A stretch of DNA of 64,000 nucleotides, from the NCBI RefSeq assembly GCF_001245615.1, contig NZ_CWKH01000001.1, forward strand, positions 1,798,001-1,862,000, written 5' to 3'. Made by a program: the position numbers and the translations under genes. Below are positions 38,435 to 55,373 of the stretch, piece after piece; position 1 is the stretch's first letter; every line of letters begins with the position of its first letter. Origin of the DNA: Mycolicibacterium neworleansense (GTDB lineage Bacteria > Actinomycetota > Actinomycetes > Mycobacteriales > Mycobacteriaceae). Below the pieces are notes generated by a model. The model was not told the origin of the DNA. It saw nothing but the letters and a program-made list of their open reading frames with translations, and did no database searches.

Positions 38435-38650
38435 ACTGCAGCCGAAGACGTGTACGCCGGATTGTGCCGGGTCGCGCGCAGGGGCGATGAACTCGGCGGG
38501 GACGCATCGAAGCTCGTCGTCGCGGGCGACGGCATCGCCCGGACTGCCGAAGCACTTGCGGCCCACGGTGTTCCGGTGGCGTACCACACTCATCCCGGCG
38601 CCATCCACGGGTTCATGAACCATGCCGCTGGCCCTGGCCGGCACGGCTAG
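38435..38650 (+). pseudogene. Internally deleted HSL/LipR-type alpha/beta hydrolase remnant
   Basis: Read in frame, TAAEDVYAGLCRVARRGDELGGDASKLVVAGD matches the segment leading to the GDSAGG nucleophile of hormone-sensitive-lipase-type hydrolases. It then jumps to a typical C-terminus (AEALAAHGVPVAYHTHPGAIHGFMN) and stops at TAG 38648. The nucleophile, the core between the two parts and the N-terminal HGGG region are missing. The stretch 38158-38434 upstream holds no recognisable gene. Its position beside a Baeyer-Villiger monooxygenase matches the mymA-lipR pair of M. tuberculosis. Confidence 0.7.
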
Positions 38651-38673
38651 GCAGCAGGCCCCCGCAGGGACCG

Positions 38674-40326
38674 CTAGGCGGACAGATCGTGGTGGATGTC
38701 GAAGCCCTTGTAACCGGCCGCCGCGACATCGGAGATGATCTCGCCGTACACGCCGAAGCCGCCGACGAACGGCATGAACACCCGGGGCTTGCCCGGGATG
38801 TTCGCGCCGAGATACCACGAATTGGCTTGGGGCATGAGCGTTTCAGCGGCGCGGCGGGTGCACTCGGCCACCCACTCGGCTGCGGCGTCCTCGCGTGCCT
38901 CGATCGCCGGAGCGCCCTGGGCGTCGAGGTAGGCGATCGCATCGGCCACCCAGTTCAGGTGCAGTTCCGAGTGCAGCACCATGTTGGCCAGCACCGAAGG
39001 GGCGCCAGGGCCGGCGATATTGAACAGGTTCGGGAAGCCCGGCACTCCGAGACCGAGGTAGGTCAACGGCCCTTCGGCCCACGCCTGGTTGAGGGTCCGG
39101 CCACCCCGGCCCACCACATTGAGCTTCTGGACCGAGCCGGTCATCGCATCGAACCCGGTGGCCAGTACGAGTGCGTCCAGGTCGTAGTGCGCATCGGTGG
39201 TGTCGATGCCGGACGGGTCGACGCGCTCGATCGGTGTCGCGCGCAGATTGACCAACGAGACGTTGTCCCGGTTGAAGGTCTGGAAGTAGTTGTCGTCGGT
39301 GCAGATTCGCTTGGCGCCGATCGGATGGTCCTTCGGGATCAGCACGTCGGCCACCGCGGGATCGTCGATCACCGCGCGCACCTTCTGTTCCCAGAACAGT
39401 CGCGCGGTGTCGTTGGCCTCGATGGTGAGCAGTTGGTCCGGGAATGCCTTCGAGAACAACACGCCACCCAACTCCCAGCGCCGCTCGTAGGTCTGTTGCC
39501 GTTCCTCGGCGGAGACGTCGAGGGCGGACTTGGGGTGTGGCTGGTGCGGCGAGCCGCCGCCGCTGAGCATTGACAGCCGGCGCCGCTCGGCGTACCCGGC
39601 CTTCTGCGCGGCGCGCGTGTCGTCGTCGAGCGGAATGTTGCCGGCCGGCACGCTGTAGTTCGGGGTGCGCTGGAAGACGTAGAGCTGTGCGGCCTCTTTG
39701 GCGATGTGCGGGATCGCCTGGATCCCCGAGGACCCCGTCCCGATCACGCCGACCCGCTTGCCGGTGAAGTCGACGCCTTCGTGTGGCCAGTGGGCAGTGT
39801 GGTACACCTCGCCGGCGAACGAATCGAGGCCCTCGATCGCCGGGATGTTCGCATTCGACAGCGGACCTACCGCCAGGATGCAGAAGCGGGCGGACACCGC
39901 GTCGCCGCGGTCGGTGCGGACCTCCCAGCGCAGGGTCGATTCGTCGAGCGCCATGTCGGTCACGCGGGTCCCGAAGGAGATGTCACGCCGCAGGTCGAAC
40001 CGGTCGGCCACGTGGTTGAGGTAGGCCAGGATCTCCGGCTGGGTGGCGTACTTCTCGGTCCAGTTCCACTCCTGCTCAAGTTCGGGGTCGAATGAGTAGG
40101 AGTAGTCCACGCTCTCGACGTCGCACCGGGCGCCCGGATAGCGGTTCCAGTACCAGACGCCACCCACCCCGTCGGCGGCTTCGAACACCCGCACCGAAAG
40201 GCCTTGTCCCCGAAGGCGATGCAACGCGTACAGCCCGGCGAAGCCGGCTCCTACCACGACGACATCCACCACGGCGGAGGTTGGTTCGGCGGTACCTGAC
40301 GGAGCTGGCTGGGCTGTCACTGTCAT
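38674..40326 (-). CDS. Flavin-containing Baeyer-Villiger monooxygenase
   Basis: The 550-residue enzyme is predicted to insert oxygen next to a ketone with NADPH and O2, making an ester or lactone. The FAD Rossmann motif VVVVGAGFAGLYALHRL lies near residue 22, and WNRYPGARCDVESVDYSYSF follows as in cyclohexanone monooxygenases. The family fingerprint FAGEVYHTAHWPHEGVDFTG is complete (F-x-G-x-x-x-H-x-x-x-W-P), followed by the NADP motif VGVIGTGSSGIQ. The ATG start is at 40326. It is divergent from two SDR genes that could make its ketone substrate. MymA (Rv3083) is the closest familiar M. tuberculosis parallel by operon context. Confidence 0.9.
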   Translation of the reverse strand: MTVTAQPAPSGTAEPTSAVVDVVVVGAGFAGLYALHRLRGQGLSVRVFEAADGVGGVWYWNRYPGARCDVESVDYSYSFDPELEQEWNWTEKYATQPEILAYLNHVADRFDLRRDISFGTRVTDMALDESTLRWEVRTDRGDAVSARFCILAVGPLSNANIPAIEGLDSFAGEVYHTAHWPHEGVDFTGKRVGVIGTGSSGIQAIPHIAKEAAQLYVFQRTPNYSVPAGNIPLDDDTRAAQKAGYAERRRLSMLSGGGSPHQPHPKSALDVSAEERQQTYERRWELGGVLFSKAFPDQLLTIEANDTARLFWEQKVRAVIDDPAVADVLIPKDHPIGAKRICTDDNYFQTFNRDNVSLVNLRATPIERVDPSGIDTTDAHYDLDALVLATGFDAMTGSVQKLNVVGRGGRTLNQAWAEGPLTYLGLGVPGFPNLFNIAGPGAPSVLANMVLHSELHLNWVADAIAYLDAQGAPAIEAREDAAAEWVAECTRRAAETLMPQANSWYLGANIPGKPRVFMPFVGGFGVYGEIISDVAAAGYKGFDIHHDLSA

Positions 40327-40661
40327 TGCCTTTCGCTTCACGGTTCGGCACGTCACGTTACGAACGACCGTGTGAGGTGGACAGCTGTTGTCTCACTCAC
40401 CGGTACGAGGGCCTCCCGGGGCGTGCCAGCAAACCACGACGCGGAATATTGCGCGTGTTCTGCCCGCGGTCCCCGCCATGTTCGAGCGTTCACATCGGGG
40501 CGGTTGGCGAGCGAGGAACTCGGCTGGCGCCCGCCGCCGGCCGACCGGCATTCTCATTCCGCTGAATGGGACTTTCCACCACGCCATCAACACGGCGAAT
40601 ATCGTTGCGTCCAGGATCGAAACCGGATCCGCGAGATCAACCCTGAGAGGAAATTGTTGGG
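40327..40661. other. 335-bp divergent intergenic region
   Basis: No gene is recognisable between the Baeyer-Villiger gene and the SDR pair. It must hold both promoters. A weak inverted repeat CATTC-CGCT-GAATG lies at 40555-40568, and GAGAGG upstream of ATG 40662 is the SDR ribosome site. A regulator site (IclR or TetR of the island) is expected here but cannot be assigned. Confidence 0.5.
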
Positions 40662-41438
40662 ATGCAAGCAGATTCGGATAGCTTGTCGGACGTCGTAGCG
40701 ATCGTCACCGGCGGCGCACGCGGCCTCGGCGCGTCGTTCGCCCAGCACATCGTCGCCCGTGGCGGCAAGGTGGTGATCTCGGACGTACTCGACGACGACG
40801 GCGCGGCACTGGCTGCCGAGCTGGGCGATGCGGCCCGCTACGTTCACCTCGACGTGACCGACGCGGCGCAGTGGAAATCGGCGGTCGAACTCACCATTTC
40901 GGAGTTCGGCAAGCTGAACGGCCTGGTGAACAACGCAGGCATCTCCACCGGCCAGTTCATCGAGCACGAGCCGCTCGACCACTTCCGTACGGTGCTCGAG
41001 ATCAATCTCGTCGGCGTCTTCAACGGCCTGCAGGCGGTCATCGCTCCGATGCGGGCCGCCGGTGGAGGCTCGATCGTCAACATCTCGTCGGCTGCCGGCC
41101 TGATGGGCCTGGCGCTGACCGCCGGATACGGCGCATCCAAGTGGGGTGTGCGCGGGCTGAGCAAGATCGCCGCGGTGGAGCTCGGTCCGGACCGCATCAG
41201 GGTGAACTCGGTGCATCCCGGTATGACCTACACCCCGATGACCGCGCAGATCGGCATCGAACGGGGTGAGGGCAACTACCCGAACACCCCGATGGGCCGC
41301 GTCGGTGAGGCCGACGAGATCGCCGGCGCAGTCGGTTACCTGCTGTCCGGCGCATCAACCTACGTCACCGGCGCCGAGATCGCCGTCGACGGCGGCTGGA
41401 CCGCCGGTCCGACCGTGAAGTACGTGATGGGACAGTGA
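40662..41438 (+). CDS. SDR dehydrogenase (3-alpha/20-beta-HSD-like), A
   Basis: The 258-residue classical short-chain dehydrogenase has [13 protein letters not shown] for NAD binding, Asp at the end of strand 2 (ISDVLDDDG, favouring NAD), NNAGIS and the catalytic Ser-Tyr-Lys (IVNISSAAG, then [10 protein letters not shown]). It resembles FabG3/20-beta-hydroxysteroid dehydrogenase proteins. It probably oxidises an alcohol to the ketone used by the divergent Baeyer-Villiger enzyme. Its stop overlaps the next SDR by 4 nt (GTGA). Confidence 0.88.
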
Positions 41439-54648: not shown

Positions 54649-54655
54649 GCCCGGG

Positions 54656-54692
54656 ACGCTATATGGATCGAATGATTGGATCAAGTGATCCA
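54656..54692 (-). promoter_or_regulatory. LLM gene promoter with TGGATC repeats
   Basis: A -10 (TAGCGT on the minus strand, 54656-54661) is followed upstream by a TGGATC half-site at 54664-54669 and the palindrome TGGATCAAGTGATCCA at 54677-54692. Binding there would cover the -10 to -35 interval, consistent with repression by the adjacent TetR protein; the regulator is not proven. Confidence 0.5.
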
Positions 54693-54734
54693 TAAATTTC
54701 GGCGTGAAAGCTCCCGCTGGACAGGATGGATCGG

Positions 54735-55373
54735 TCAGGAACCGAGCAGGCGGTCGACCCCGCCGACGACGAAACTCACCAGGTCGTCGTAGAAGTCACG
54801 CAGTTCCGCTTCGTCCAGCCGGCCGCCGTTGCGGCGCCATTCGTCGGCACGGCTCAGCGCCTGGATGAAGTTCATGATCGAGATGGCCCAGCGCAGTTCC
54901 AGGCGCGCCGGATCGGAATCCGGAAACGCCCGCTGCACCTGGGTGAACAATTCGTCGGGAAGGTGCTGCTCGGTGTCGAGCAGGACCGGATTGTTGTCCT
55001 GGGAGATCTGCGCGATGATCTTGATCCATCGCATGCCCCGGACCCGATGGCGCAGTAGCAGTTTCAGATACGGCTCGGTGACCGCCCGGACGAGCGCGTC
55101 GGCGCTCGGCGCGACCGGGTCGGCCGCGAGCACCGCCACGTTGGCCGCGATCTCGTCACGCACCGGCGCGCCCACATCGGTGAGCACCGCGCGCAGCAGA
55201 TCGTCCTTGGATCCGAAGTGGTAGTGCACCGAGGCGGCACCGAGCCCCGCGGCGGCATTGACCGCCCGCACCGACACCGCATCGACCCCCTGGGCGGCGA
55301 ACAGCCGCTCGGCAGCCTTCACCAGACGCAGCCGGGTGGCCGCGCCCTGCCGATTGTGGGCCGCGCCGGACAC
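54735..55373 (-). CDS. TetR-family transcriptional regulator
   Basis: The 212-residue regulator has the TetR HTH at residues about 12-58 (RLRLVKAAERLFAAQGVDAVSVRAVNAAAGLGAASVHYHFGSKDDLLRAVL) and a helical ligand domain with a C-terminal segment (RLELRWAISIMNFIQALSRADEWRRNGG) as in regulators of lipid or terpenoid catabolism. GTG 55373 is the start. It lies directly upstream of the LLM gene on the same strand, with an 86-nt gap holding the TGGATC palindrome. It closes the island. Confidence 0.86.
   Translation of the reverse strand: MSGAAHNRQGAATRLRLVKAAERLFAAQGVDAVSVRAVNAAAGLGAASVHYHFGSKDDLLRAVLTDVGAPVRDEIAANVAVLAADPVAPSADALVRAVTEPYLKLLLRHRVRGMRWIKIIAQISQDNNPVLLDTEQHLPDELFTQVQRAFPDSDPARLELRWAISIMNFIQALSRADEWRRNGGRLDEAELRDFYDDLVSFVVGGVDRLLGS

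What the first reader, a model, noticed from the sequence alone, without database searches (positions are those of the whole stretch)
38435..55373. Oxygenase-rich catabolic island between sigA and the YihY-sigB-ideR block
Fifteen intact genes plus one remnant interrupt the otherwise conserved mycobacterial order. They encode a Baeyer-Villiger enzyme, three acyl-CoA-dehydrogenase-fold flavoproteins, a LimB-like LLM monooxygenase, four SDRs, a Zn alcohol dehydrogenase, an HSL-type hydrolase, a CoA synthetase, a WS/DGAT and two local regulators. Established: BVMO, LipR, SDR, ADH, WS/DGAT and FadD together form the mymA operon; limonene degradation in Rhodococcus combines LimB-type oxygenation, dehydrogenation, Baeyer-Villiger lactonisation and CoA activation. 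Inference: this island combines both designs to degrade an alicyclic or terpenoid compound. I know of no described pathway with this exact gene set.
Basis: partly seen in the sequence, partly recalled or inferred. Interest (0 to 1): 0.78.

Follow-up and report, generated by a model that had tools for sequence, protein, structure and literature searches.

The report
Pregnane steroid breakdown gene island
A block of sixteen neighbouring mycobacterial genes most likely lets the bacterium cut the two-carbon side chain off progesterone-like steroids, and a shared DNA switch suggests that most of the block is controlled as one unit.

Summary
The fifteen genes and the remnant are there as described. 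The terpenoid/mymA reading is not supported; a C21-steroid reading is. The BVMO is 74.3% identical over 537 aa to the crystallised Rhodococcus steroid monooxygenase STMO (progesterone to testosterone acetate) and groups with it in a tree. The next gene is 72.1% identical over 251 aa to 3alpha,20beta-hydroxysteroid dehydrogenase. The three flavoproteins are HsaA-like, below the HsaA cut-off. A locus encoding a BVMO identical to STMO carries a KshA-type oxygenase, KstD-, HsaA- and HsaC-like genes and an IclR. New here: a 17-bp palindrome (about GTCYCGCTSAGCGRGAC) between divergent island genes. At one mismatch it has eight sites in the genome, four intergenic in the island and four inside other ORFs, and a window-trained matrix finds it between the same genes in seven more distant mycobacteria. 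It also precedes the neighbouring histidine phosphatase, which I count as a sixteenth gene. Proposed pathway: 20-alcohol, 20-ketone, 17beta-acetate, 17beta-alcohol, 17-ketone, then ring degradation elsewhere, under the local IclR. Substrates, activities and regulator binding are inferred. ADH-LLM-TetR is a separate unit of unknown substrate; its LLM is only 22.9% identical to a pdc-type progesterone LLM.

The parts
36718..38157 (-). Histidine phosphatase (branch 1), proposed 16th island gene; start codon uncertain (ORF open to 38304)
   Evidence: Pfam PF00300, 114 bits for the 528-aa ORF; operator 124-176 bp upstream in 9 of 9 complex genomes that have the gene and upstream of its homologues inside the islands of hubeiense, IS-3022 and GA-0227b; not found in 19 of 19 island-free intervals; tandem own-genome paralogues beside a steroid thiolase gene
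38328..38344 (.). Operator-like palindrome GTCTCGCTCAGCGGTAC
38438..38620 (+). Remnant of a second HSL-type esterase (two fragments)
38674..40320 (-). Type I BVMO, STMO group (start could be a few codons upstream)
   Evidence: 74.3% over 537 aa to STMO 4aos, clade support 98, 935 bits against 635 for PAMO
40390..40406 (.). Operator-like palindrome GTCTCACTCACCGGTAC
40556..40572 (.). Weaker second copy of the palindrome upstream of SDR1
   Evidence: a seed of the matrix, so not independent
40662..41438 (+). SDR1, 3alpha,20beta-hydroxysteroid dehydrogenase-like
   Evidence: 72.1% over 251 aa to 2HSD
41435..42235 (+). SDR2, SDR of unsettled substrate
42301..43383 (-). HsaA-like flavin monooxygenase D
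   Evidence: NF045629 267.6 bits, cut-off 450
43457..43473 (.). Operator-like palindrome ATCTCACTCAGCGGGAT (reverse strand)
43512..44402 (+). IclR-family regulator, proposed island regulator (start uncertain)
   Evidence: in 20 of 20 islands compared
44412..45509 (-). HsaA-like flavin monooxygenase F
   Evidence: NF045629 307.4 bits, cut-off 450
45584..46585 (+). HsaA-like protein G, fast-evolving
   Evidence: NF045629 131.6 bits; dN/dS 0.29 and 0.36 with L137 and L140, other island genes 0.035-0.15; with L151 0.44 against 0.12-0.28; 7 of 36 residues invariant in 11 relatives are changed in all HsaG rows
46535..47971 (-). WS/DGAT acyltransferase
   Evidence: TIGR02946 382.8 bits, cut-off 309.95
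48060..48076 (.). Operator-like palindrome GTCCCGCACAGCGAGAC
48114..49766 (+). FadD2/FadD12-like acyl-CoA synthetase (start uncertain)
   Evidence: both models below their cut-offs
49793..50740 (+). HSL-type esterase
   Evidence: LipP1 model 349 bits, cut-off 350
50751..51548 (+). SDR3
51548..52321 (+). SDR4, second 3alpha,20beta-HSD-like SDR
   Evidence: 53.3% over 242 aa to 2HSD
52344..52397 (.). Perfect 21-bp inverted repeat, likely bidirectional terminator
52400..53455 (-). Zn-dependent alcohol dehydrogenase
53452..54693 (-). LLM-class flavin monooxygenase
54735..55373 (-). TetR regulator, first gene of the TetR-LLM-ADH unit

Best explanation
The core island (BVMO to SDR4, with the histidine phosphatase) is an inducible module for C21 20-oxygenated steroids (progesterone, pregnanes). 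Inferred steps: SDR1 and/or SDR4 oxidise a 20beta-alcohol, and perhaps a 3alpha-alcohol, to the ketone; the BVMO inserts oxygen between C17 and C20, giving a 17beta-acetate ester (progesterone to testosterone acetate); the esterase releases acetate; SDR2 or SDR3 oxidises the 17beta-alcohol to the 17-ketone (androstenedione type), which the host's core steroid genes elsewhere degrade. HsaA-like D and F probably hydroxylate a phenolic seco-steroid or a related intermediate, with a reductase from elsewhere; FadD and WS/DGAT probably make or turn over acyl esters of steroid alcohols. The local IclR protein probably acts at the 17-bp palindrome in the shared divergent promoters. TetR-LLM-ADH is a separate unit, joined to the core only in the M. 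fortuitum complex among the genomes compared. Shown: gene content, close relationships of BVMO and SDR1, conservation, motif distribution. Inferred: every reaction, every substrate, and which protein binds the motif.
For: BVMO 74.3% to STMO and in one clade with it (54 rows, support 98), a 41-row second group outside. SDR1 72.1% to 3alpha,20beta-HSD. Counts by locus: HsaC-like 15 of 31 non-mycobacterial STMO-clade loci, 31 of 33 second-group loci, 0 of 16 remaining loci; KshA-type 14, 3 and 0; KstD-like 13, 2 and 0 (the queries come from one of the 31 loci, L195, and from L204). In M. kyorinense and Mycolicibacter sp. MYC340 the island lies beside HsaA-like, HsaC-like and FAD-protein genes. 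Operator: 8 distinct genome sites, 4 intergenic in the island, 4 inside ORFs, reversed-pattern control 1; a window-trained matrix hits BVMO/SDR1 in 7 of 7 and DGAT/FadD or DGAT/esterase in 7 of 7 distant islands, shuffled 20-kb controls 0-2 hits over the full length; shuffle p<=0.01 upstream of BVMO in 7 of 8 other mycobacterial, 17 of 24 Nocardia/Gordonia-type, 3 of 7 Rhodococcus-type and 14 of 41 second-group genes. Host has two genes over the HsaA cut-off and KstD-like genes. PMC12239570 shows that growth on progesterone needs such a Baeyer-Villiger step in a sphingomonad.
Against: No activity or expression data. The motif was noticed by eye in the window and its matrix seeded there; only out-of-sample hits are independent, it is weak or absent before part of the homologues, and shuffles kept base composition only. 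No KstD-like or HsaC-like gene lies in the island. The flavoproteins of the island miss the HsaA cut-off; the HsaC-like genes of homologous loci pass a biphenyl-diol dioxygenase model but not the HsaC model, and the KstD-like genes there miss the 3-ketosteroid dehydrogenase cut-offs. At the STMO-identical locus a dnaK-grpE-dnaJ group separates the KstD-like gene from the BVMO. 16 of 31 STMO-clade loci show no HsaC-like gene. The roles of FadD, WS/DGAT and HsaG are guesses. The LLM is not an orthologue of the pdc LLM.
Confidence: 0.8

Rival explanations
1. Alicyclic or terpenoid degradation island: LLM oxygenation, dehydrogenation, Baeyer-Villiger lactonisation and CoA activation of a monoterpene.
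For: LLM homologues are often named limonene 1,2-monooxygenase; a 45% homologue in Novosphingobium resinovorum lies within about 10 kb of an epoxide hydrolase, an ADH and an aldehyde dehydrogenase gene; the closest PDB relative of the LLM is 3,6-diketocamphane monooxygenase, weakly, 82 bits.
Against: BVMO and SDR1 are closest to steroid enzymes; loci of homologues often hold steroid ring genes; the LLM unit is missing from 10 of 20 islands compared; no epoxide hydrolase family appeared among the island ORFs searched.
Confidence: 0.06
2. An aromatic-ketone pathway: BVMO gives an aryl ester, the esterase a phenol, the HsaA-like enzymes a catechol, and an extradiol dioxygenase elsewhere opens the ring.
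For: PAMO is the next solved relative of the BVMO; the HsaC-like genes near homologues pass the biphenyl-2,3-diol dioxygenase cut-off, not the HsaC one.
Against: STMO is clearly closer than PAMO; SDR1 is a 3alpha,20beta-HSD relative; KshA-type and KstD-like genes lie at 14 and 13 of 31 STMO-clade loci and at 0 of 16 remaining ones.
Confidence: 0.05
3. mymA-like operon for remodelling cell-envelope lipids (BVMO, LipR, SDR, ADH, WS/DGAT, FadD).
Against: BVMO groups with STMO; best FadD models are FadD2/FadD12, below cut-off; no AraC-type regulator appeared among the island ORFs searched; HsaA-like genes are not explained. The MymA sequence itself was not compared.
Confidence: 0.04
4. A steroid island for another class: phenolic steroids or D-ring lactonisation of C19 steroids rather than removal of a C21 side chain.
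For: Three HsaA-like flavoproteins; BVMOs can act on cyclic ketones (general knowledge).
Against: SDR1 resembles a 20beta-HSD, and STMO, the closest enzyme, acts on the C20 ketone (PMC12239570 passages).
Confidence: 0.12

Closest known systems
Steroid monooxygenase STMO of Rhodococcus rhodochrous and its locus
   Same: BVMO 74.3% identical and in the same clade; a locus with an identical BVMO also has an HsaA-like gene, an IclR and SDRs
   Different: That locus has a KshA-type oxygenase, KstD- and HsaC-like genes and no close match to SDR1; the island has SDR1, three HsaA-like genes, WS/DGAT, FadD and esterase
pdc progesterone cluster of Caenibius tardaugens (PMC12239570)
   Same: A type I BVMO, an LLM and a TetR near each other; first step proposed to be progesterone to testosterone acetate
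   Different: The window LLM is only 22.9% identical over 350 aa to the Novosphingobium aromaticivorans counterpart; no LuxR, an IclR instead; pdc has 4 genes. Per the paper the pdc BVMO is 30.4% identical to STMO
3alpha,20beta-hydroxysteroid dehydrogenase (PDB 2hsd)
   Same: SDR1 72.1%, SDR4 53.3%
   Different: Here next to an STMO-type BVMO gene; activity not tested
HsaA (3-HSA monooxygenase oxygenase)
   Same: Best NCBIfam model for D, F and G
   Different: All below the 450-bit cut-off; the host has two separate genes above it
mymA operon of M. tuberculosis (recalled)
   Same: Overlap in enzyme classes
   Different: Different regulator type, HsaA-like genes, STMO-type BVMO

Membership tests
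STMO group of type I BVMOs | BVMO fingerprint FxGxxxHxxxW(P/D) (recalled motif) | tested here: met
   FAGEVYHTAHWP in the translation
STMO group of type I BVMOs | Groups with STMO rather than with other BVMOs | tested here: met
   54-row clade, support 98, quick tree of 111 rows without PAMO
STMO group of type I BVMOs | Progesterone to testosterone acetate activity | not testable with these tools
   needs purified enzyme
3alpha,20beta-HSD | Full-length close similarity to 2HSD | tested here: met
   SDR1 72.1% over 251 aa; next different protein Rv2002 at 240.8 against 378.1 bits
HsaA equivalog (NF045629) | Score at or above 450 bits | tested here: not met
   267.6, 307.4 and 131.6 bits
pdc progesterone cluster | Type I BVMO and orthologous LLM together | tested here: not met
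   LLM 22.9% over 350 aa
pdc progesterone cluster | LuxR-type plus TetR regulator | tested here: not met
   IclR and TetR here
Limonene pathway | Epoxide hydrolase with the LLM | tested here: not met
   no such family among the island ORFs searched
Limonene pathway | LLM orthologous to LimB | not tested
   no LimB sequence at hand
mymA operon | AraC-type VirS regulator (recalled) | tested here: not met
   no AraC family among the island ORFs searched
Single regulon | One operator-like site shared by the island's divergent promoters | tested here: met
   3 of 4 divergent pairs plus the phosphatase; none between HsaF and HsaG. Binding and regulation not tested

The most novel reading that the evidence does not exclude
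An undescribed pregnane regulon of mycobacteria: an IclR protein at a 17-bp palindrome governs a pathway for 20-hydroxy and 20-keto C21 steroids. It would include a fatty-ester cycle for steroid alcohols (FadD, WS/DGAT, esterase), a histidine phosphatase, and new HsaA-type hydroxylases acting on steroids that still carry the side-chain oxygen, with HsaF and HsaG, read from divergent genes, working as unequal partners.
Probability: 0.2. Interest if true: 0.72.

Novelty: new variant of a known kind. Interest (0 to 1): 0.52.

Why it matters
STMO has a solved structure and a known reaction, but PMC12239570 states that the progesterone pathway of its host was not described. This work links STMO-type genes in several genera of the family to a recurring steroid locus with one candidate operator, and names a set of genes to delete. 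It would explain how fast-growing mycobacteria could remove C21 steroid hormones, which matters for hormone pollution and for steroid production strains, where side-chain loss is unwanted.

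Tried and rejected
Rejected: limonene-type, aromatic-ketone and mymA-type readings (see rivals). I expected the island LLM to be the pdc LLM, which would have made BVMO plus LLM a pdc homologue; the comparison gave 22.9% identity, so this was dropped. Pairwise 20-mer comparison of four intergenic regions against shuffles showed nothing significant in 6 of 6 pairs; the palindrome was found by reading the conserved blocks and then tested out of sample. 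The IUPAC search in the window alone is weak evidence (5 matches at 4 places, shuffles mean 1.18, 1 of 100 shuffles reached 5), and the sites were its source. A TetR-operator guess upstream of TetR was looked at in the window and 12 loci: a partly conserved GTGACATGCTCGTC stretch in the complex, not seen in the two Nocardia loci, not pursued. HsaF/HsaG as an obligate pair is doubtful: HsaG is not found in the M. houstonense type-strain locus, although a database protein of that species exists. Not run: structure prediction, fold search, RNA searches.

Selection and dropped rows: synteny tables drop matches covering under 40% of a query. The 20 islands are hits chosen for high BVMO identity; L024 (3.2-kb contig) was left out, and the Nocardia and Skermania regions L159-L161 fetched with them lack the island. 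'M. fortuitum complex' and 'M. brisbanense group' are my labels from recall. One search used 20 regions of the 40 genomes with a match. Tree rows needed 450 aligned residues, which dropped L075. One search dropped rows with under 150 bp upstream; it holds 93 rows. The 16 are shorter (median 16.5 kb against 19.9 and 21.6 kb).

Full report
WHAT IS THERE. In order: BVMO (-), SDR1-SDR2 (+), HsaA-like D (-), IclR (+), HsaA-like F (-), HsaA-like G (+), WS/DGAT (-), FadD-esterase-SDR3-SDR4 (+), and TetR-LLM-ADH (-). A perfect 21-bp inverted repeat separates SDR4 from ADH. The remnant is a decayed second esterase at 38438-38620; relatives have much longer copies beside the BVMO.

CONSERVATION. In 10 of 10 complex genomes fetched, the block lies in the same order next to DUF952-DUF7455-BrkB; SDR2 is missing in one (L139) and HsaG in one (L141). 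Three genomes of the M. brisbanense group have the twelve-gene core without ADH, LLM and TetR, in front of the same DUF952 and DUF7455 genes. Seven other mycobacteria carry BVMO, SDR1, IclR, HsaF, HsaG, DGAT, esterase, SDR3 and SDR4, none with a close HsaD; three lack FadD and five lack SDR2. So BVMO, SDR1, IclR, HsaF, DGAT, esterase, SDR3 and SDR4 occur in 20 of 20 of these islands. They were chosen because their BVMO is close, so the number describes linkage, not frequency. Of 20 regions upstream of BrkB that I picked from a genus sample, 19 lack the island and one has it; one of the 19 keeps an 89% SDR2, probably a scar of loss. Pairwise dN/dS against L137 and L140 is 0.035-0.15 for island genes other than HsaG (0.29, 0.36); against L151 it is 0.12-0.28 and 0.44. 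BVMO matches at E at most 1e-200, which include the second group, occur in 153 of 401 genomes of the family.

STEROID SIGNATURE. The BVMO's best solved relative is steroid monooxygenase 4aos, 935 bits, against 635 for phenylacetone monooxygenase; identity 74.3% over 537 aa. In a quick tree of 111 rows it sits in a 54-row clade with STMO (support 98), while the host's other STMO-like gene (C2:183273, 67% to the window BVMO, 65.4% to STMO) lies in a separate 41-row group. SDR1 is 72.1% identical to 3alpha,20beta-hydroxysteroid dehydrogenase and SDR4 53.3%. D, F and G score best against HsaA but below its cut-off.

NEIGHBOURS OF HOMOLOGUES. Its 20-kb locus holds, on one side, SDRs, a Rieske oxygenase with the KshA C-terminal domain (314.8 bits, cut-off 23.3), HsaA-like and HsaC-like genes and an IclR; on the other side, beyond a dnaK-grpE-dnaJ group, a KstD-like gene. 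A locus of a genome that groups with Nocardia has an 80% BVMO with two KstD-like genes, a KshA-type oxygenase (317.6 bits), HsaC-like and HsaA-like genes, IclR, an esterase and an 81% SDR2. The host's second BVMO cluster has Mce genes, an HsaA-like gene, a 74% HsaC-like gene, a ferredoxin-reductase-type protein and an FAD protein distantly related to KstD. Caution: the HsaC-like genes pass the cut-off of a biphenyl-2,3-diol dioxygenase model and miss that of HsaC; the KstD-like genes miss the 3-ketosteroid dehydrogenase cut-offs; the HsaA-like ones miss the HsaA cut-off. Counts by locus: HsaC-like 15 of 31 STMO-clade loci outside mycobacteria, 31 of 33 second-group loci, 0 of 16 remaining loci; KshA-type 14, 3, 0; KstD-like 13, 2, 0. 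In M. kyorinense and Mycolicibacter sp. MYC340 the island itself adjoins HsaA-like, HsaC-like and FAD-protein genes. The window island has neither KstD nor HsaC, so ring opening must use genes elsewhere; the genome has two genes above the HsaA cut-off and KstD-like genes.

A SHARED OPERATOR. Reading the conserved blocks of the divergent intergenic regions showed a 17-bp imperfect palindrome, about GTCYCGCTSAGCGRGAC, upstream of the phosphatase, between BVMO and SDR1 (a good and a weak copy), between HsaD and IclR, and between DGAT and FadD. None was found between HsaF and HsaG. In the whole genome, the pattern RTCYCRCTSAGCGRKAY with at most one mismatch has eight distinct sites; four are these, the other four lie inside predicted ORFs, and the reversed control pattern has one hit. 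The presence of the island sites is circular, the rarity elsewhere is not. Out of sample, a matrix from the window finds sites between BVMO and SDR1 in 7 of 7 distant mycobacterial islands (in one, L158, at the very start of the BVMO match) and between DGAT and FadD, or DGAT and esterase, in 7 of 7; two of the seven genomes are near-identical. Twenty shuffled 20-kb controls gave 0-2 hits each over the full length. From about 220 bp upstream to the start of the BVMO, shuffle p at most 0.01 was reached in 10 of 10 complex members (close kin of the training sites), 3 of 3 brisbanense-group, 7 of 8 other mycobacterial, 17 of 24 Nocardia/Gordonia-type, 3 of 7 Rhodococcus-type and 14 of 41 second-group genes. 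The shuffles keep base composition only, and related genomes are not independent. Since an IclR gene lies in 20 of 20 islands and near many homologues, the IclR protein is the natural candidate to bind it; this is not shown.

THE PHOSPHATASE. The histidine phosphatase left of the BVMO carries this site 124-176 bp upstream in 9 of 9 complex genomes that have the gene (8 identical copies), and also in M. hubeiense, IS-3022 and GA-0227b, where a 58-61% homologue lies inside the island. It was not found in the corresponding interval of the 19 island-free genomes, in the M. senegalense locus or in the three brisbanense-group loci. Three tandem paralogues in the host (41-54%) lie in a region with a steroid 3-ketoacyl-CoA thiolase gene (733.7 bits, cut-off 515). 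I count it as a sixteenth island gene.

THE LLM UNIT. TetR-LLM-ADH is absent in 10 of the 20 islands and occurs as a unit of its own in two Nocardia genomes, in one of them with a KshA C-terminal domain ORF close by (not every ORF of the two loci was tested). The LLM is 22.9% identical to the N. aromaticivorans counterpart of the progesterone-oxidising LLM, so I do not call it that enzyme. Steroid and terpene substrates both remain possible.

LITERATURE. PMC12239570 (mBio 2025; abstract, the pdc annotation and discussion sections, and passages seen) shows that a BVMO and an LLM of Caenibius tardaugens each convert progesterone to testosterone acetate, and says that the pathway of STMO's host was not described. 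PMC7807495 (passages seen) reports a cortisone-acetate-induced homologue of 20beta-HSD in Nocardioides simplex. Searches (listings and abstract openings seen) showed no paper that by its title or abstract treats this mycobacterial gene set or its operator; subscription journals are mostly not held, so this is not proof of absence.

JUDGEMENT. Steroid side-chain removal by a Baeyer-Villiger step is known chemistry with known enzyme classes. New are the assembled mycobacterial island, its operator and its extent. I rate it a new variant of a known kind.

Noticed in passing
L222 (G441) between sigA and DUF952: A close relative without the island keeps an 89% SDR2 at the site, apparently a scar of island loss.
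   Followed up: partly
Host genome C3:1083171-1087630: Three tandem histidine phosphatase paralogues (41-54%) of the island phosphatase lie near a steroid 3-ketoacyl-CoA thiolase gene.
   Followed up: partly
Host genome C2:172000-191900 (L143): A second STMO-like BVMO (67%) sits in a cluster with Mce, HsaA-like and HsaC-like genes, a ferredoxin-reductase-type protein and a SnoaL-like protein.
   Followed up: partly
window:45584-46585: HsaG looks like a narrow protein family: 75 matches at E<=0.001 among 7996 scored candidates, itself included; the ones with an organism name are mycobacterial apart from one weak hit. Selection on it is relaxed.
   Followed up: partly
window:45510-45583: The HsaF/HsaG intergenic region keeps TGTCACCATCGTGGAT in 11 of 13 aligned genomes and TGTCACCATCGTGAAT in the other two, possibly another regulator's site.
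   Followed up: no
L214:11507-12001 (R. jostii pRHL3): A 43% homologue of the island LLM lies next to a flavin reductase gene, a possible natural partner.
   Followed up: no
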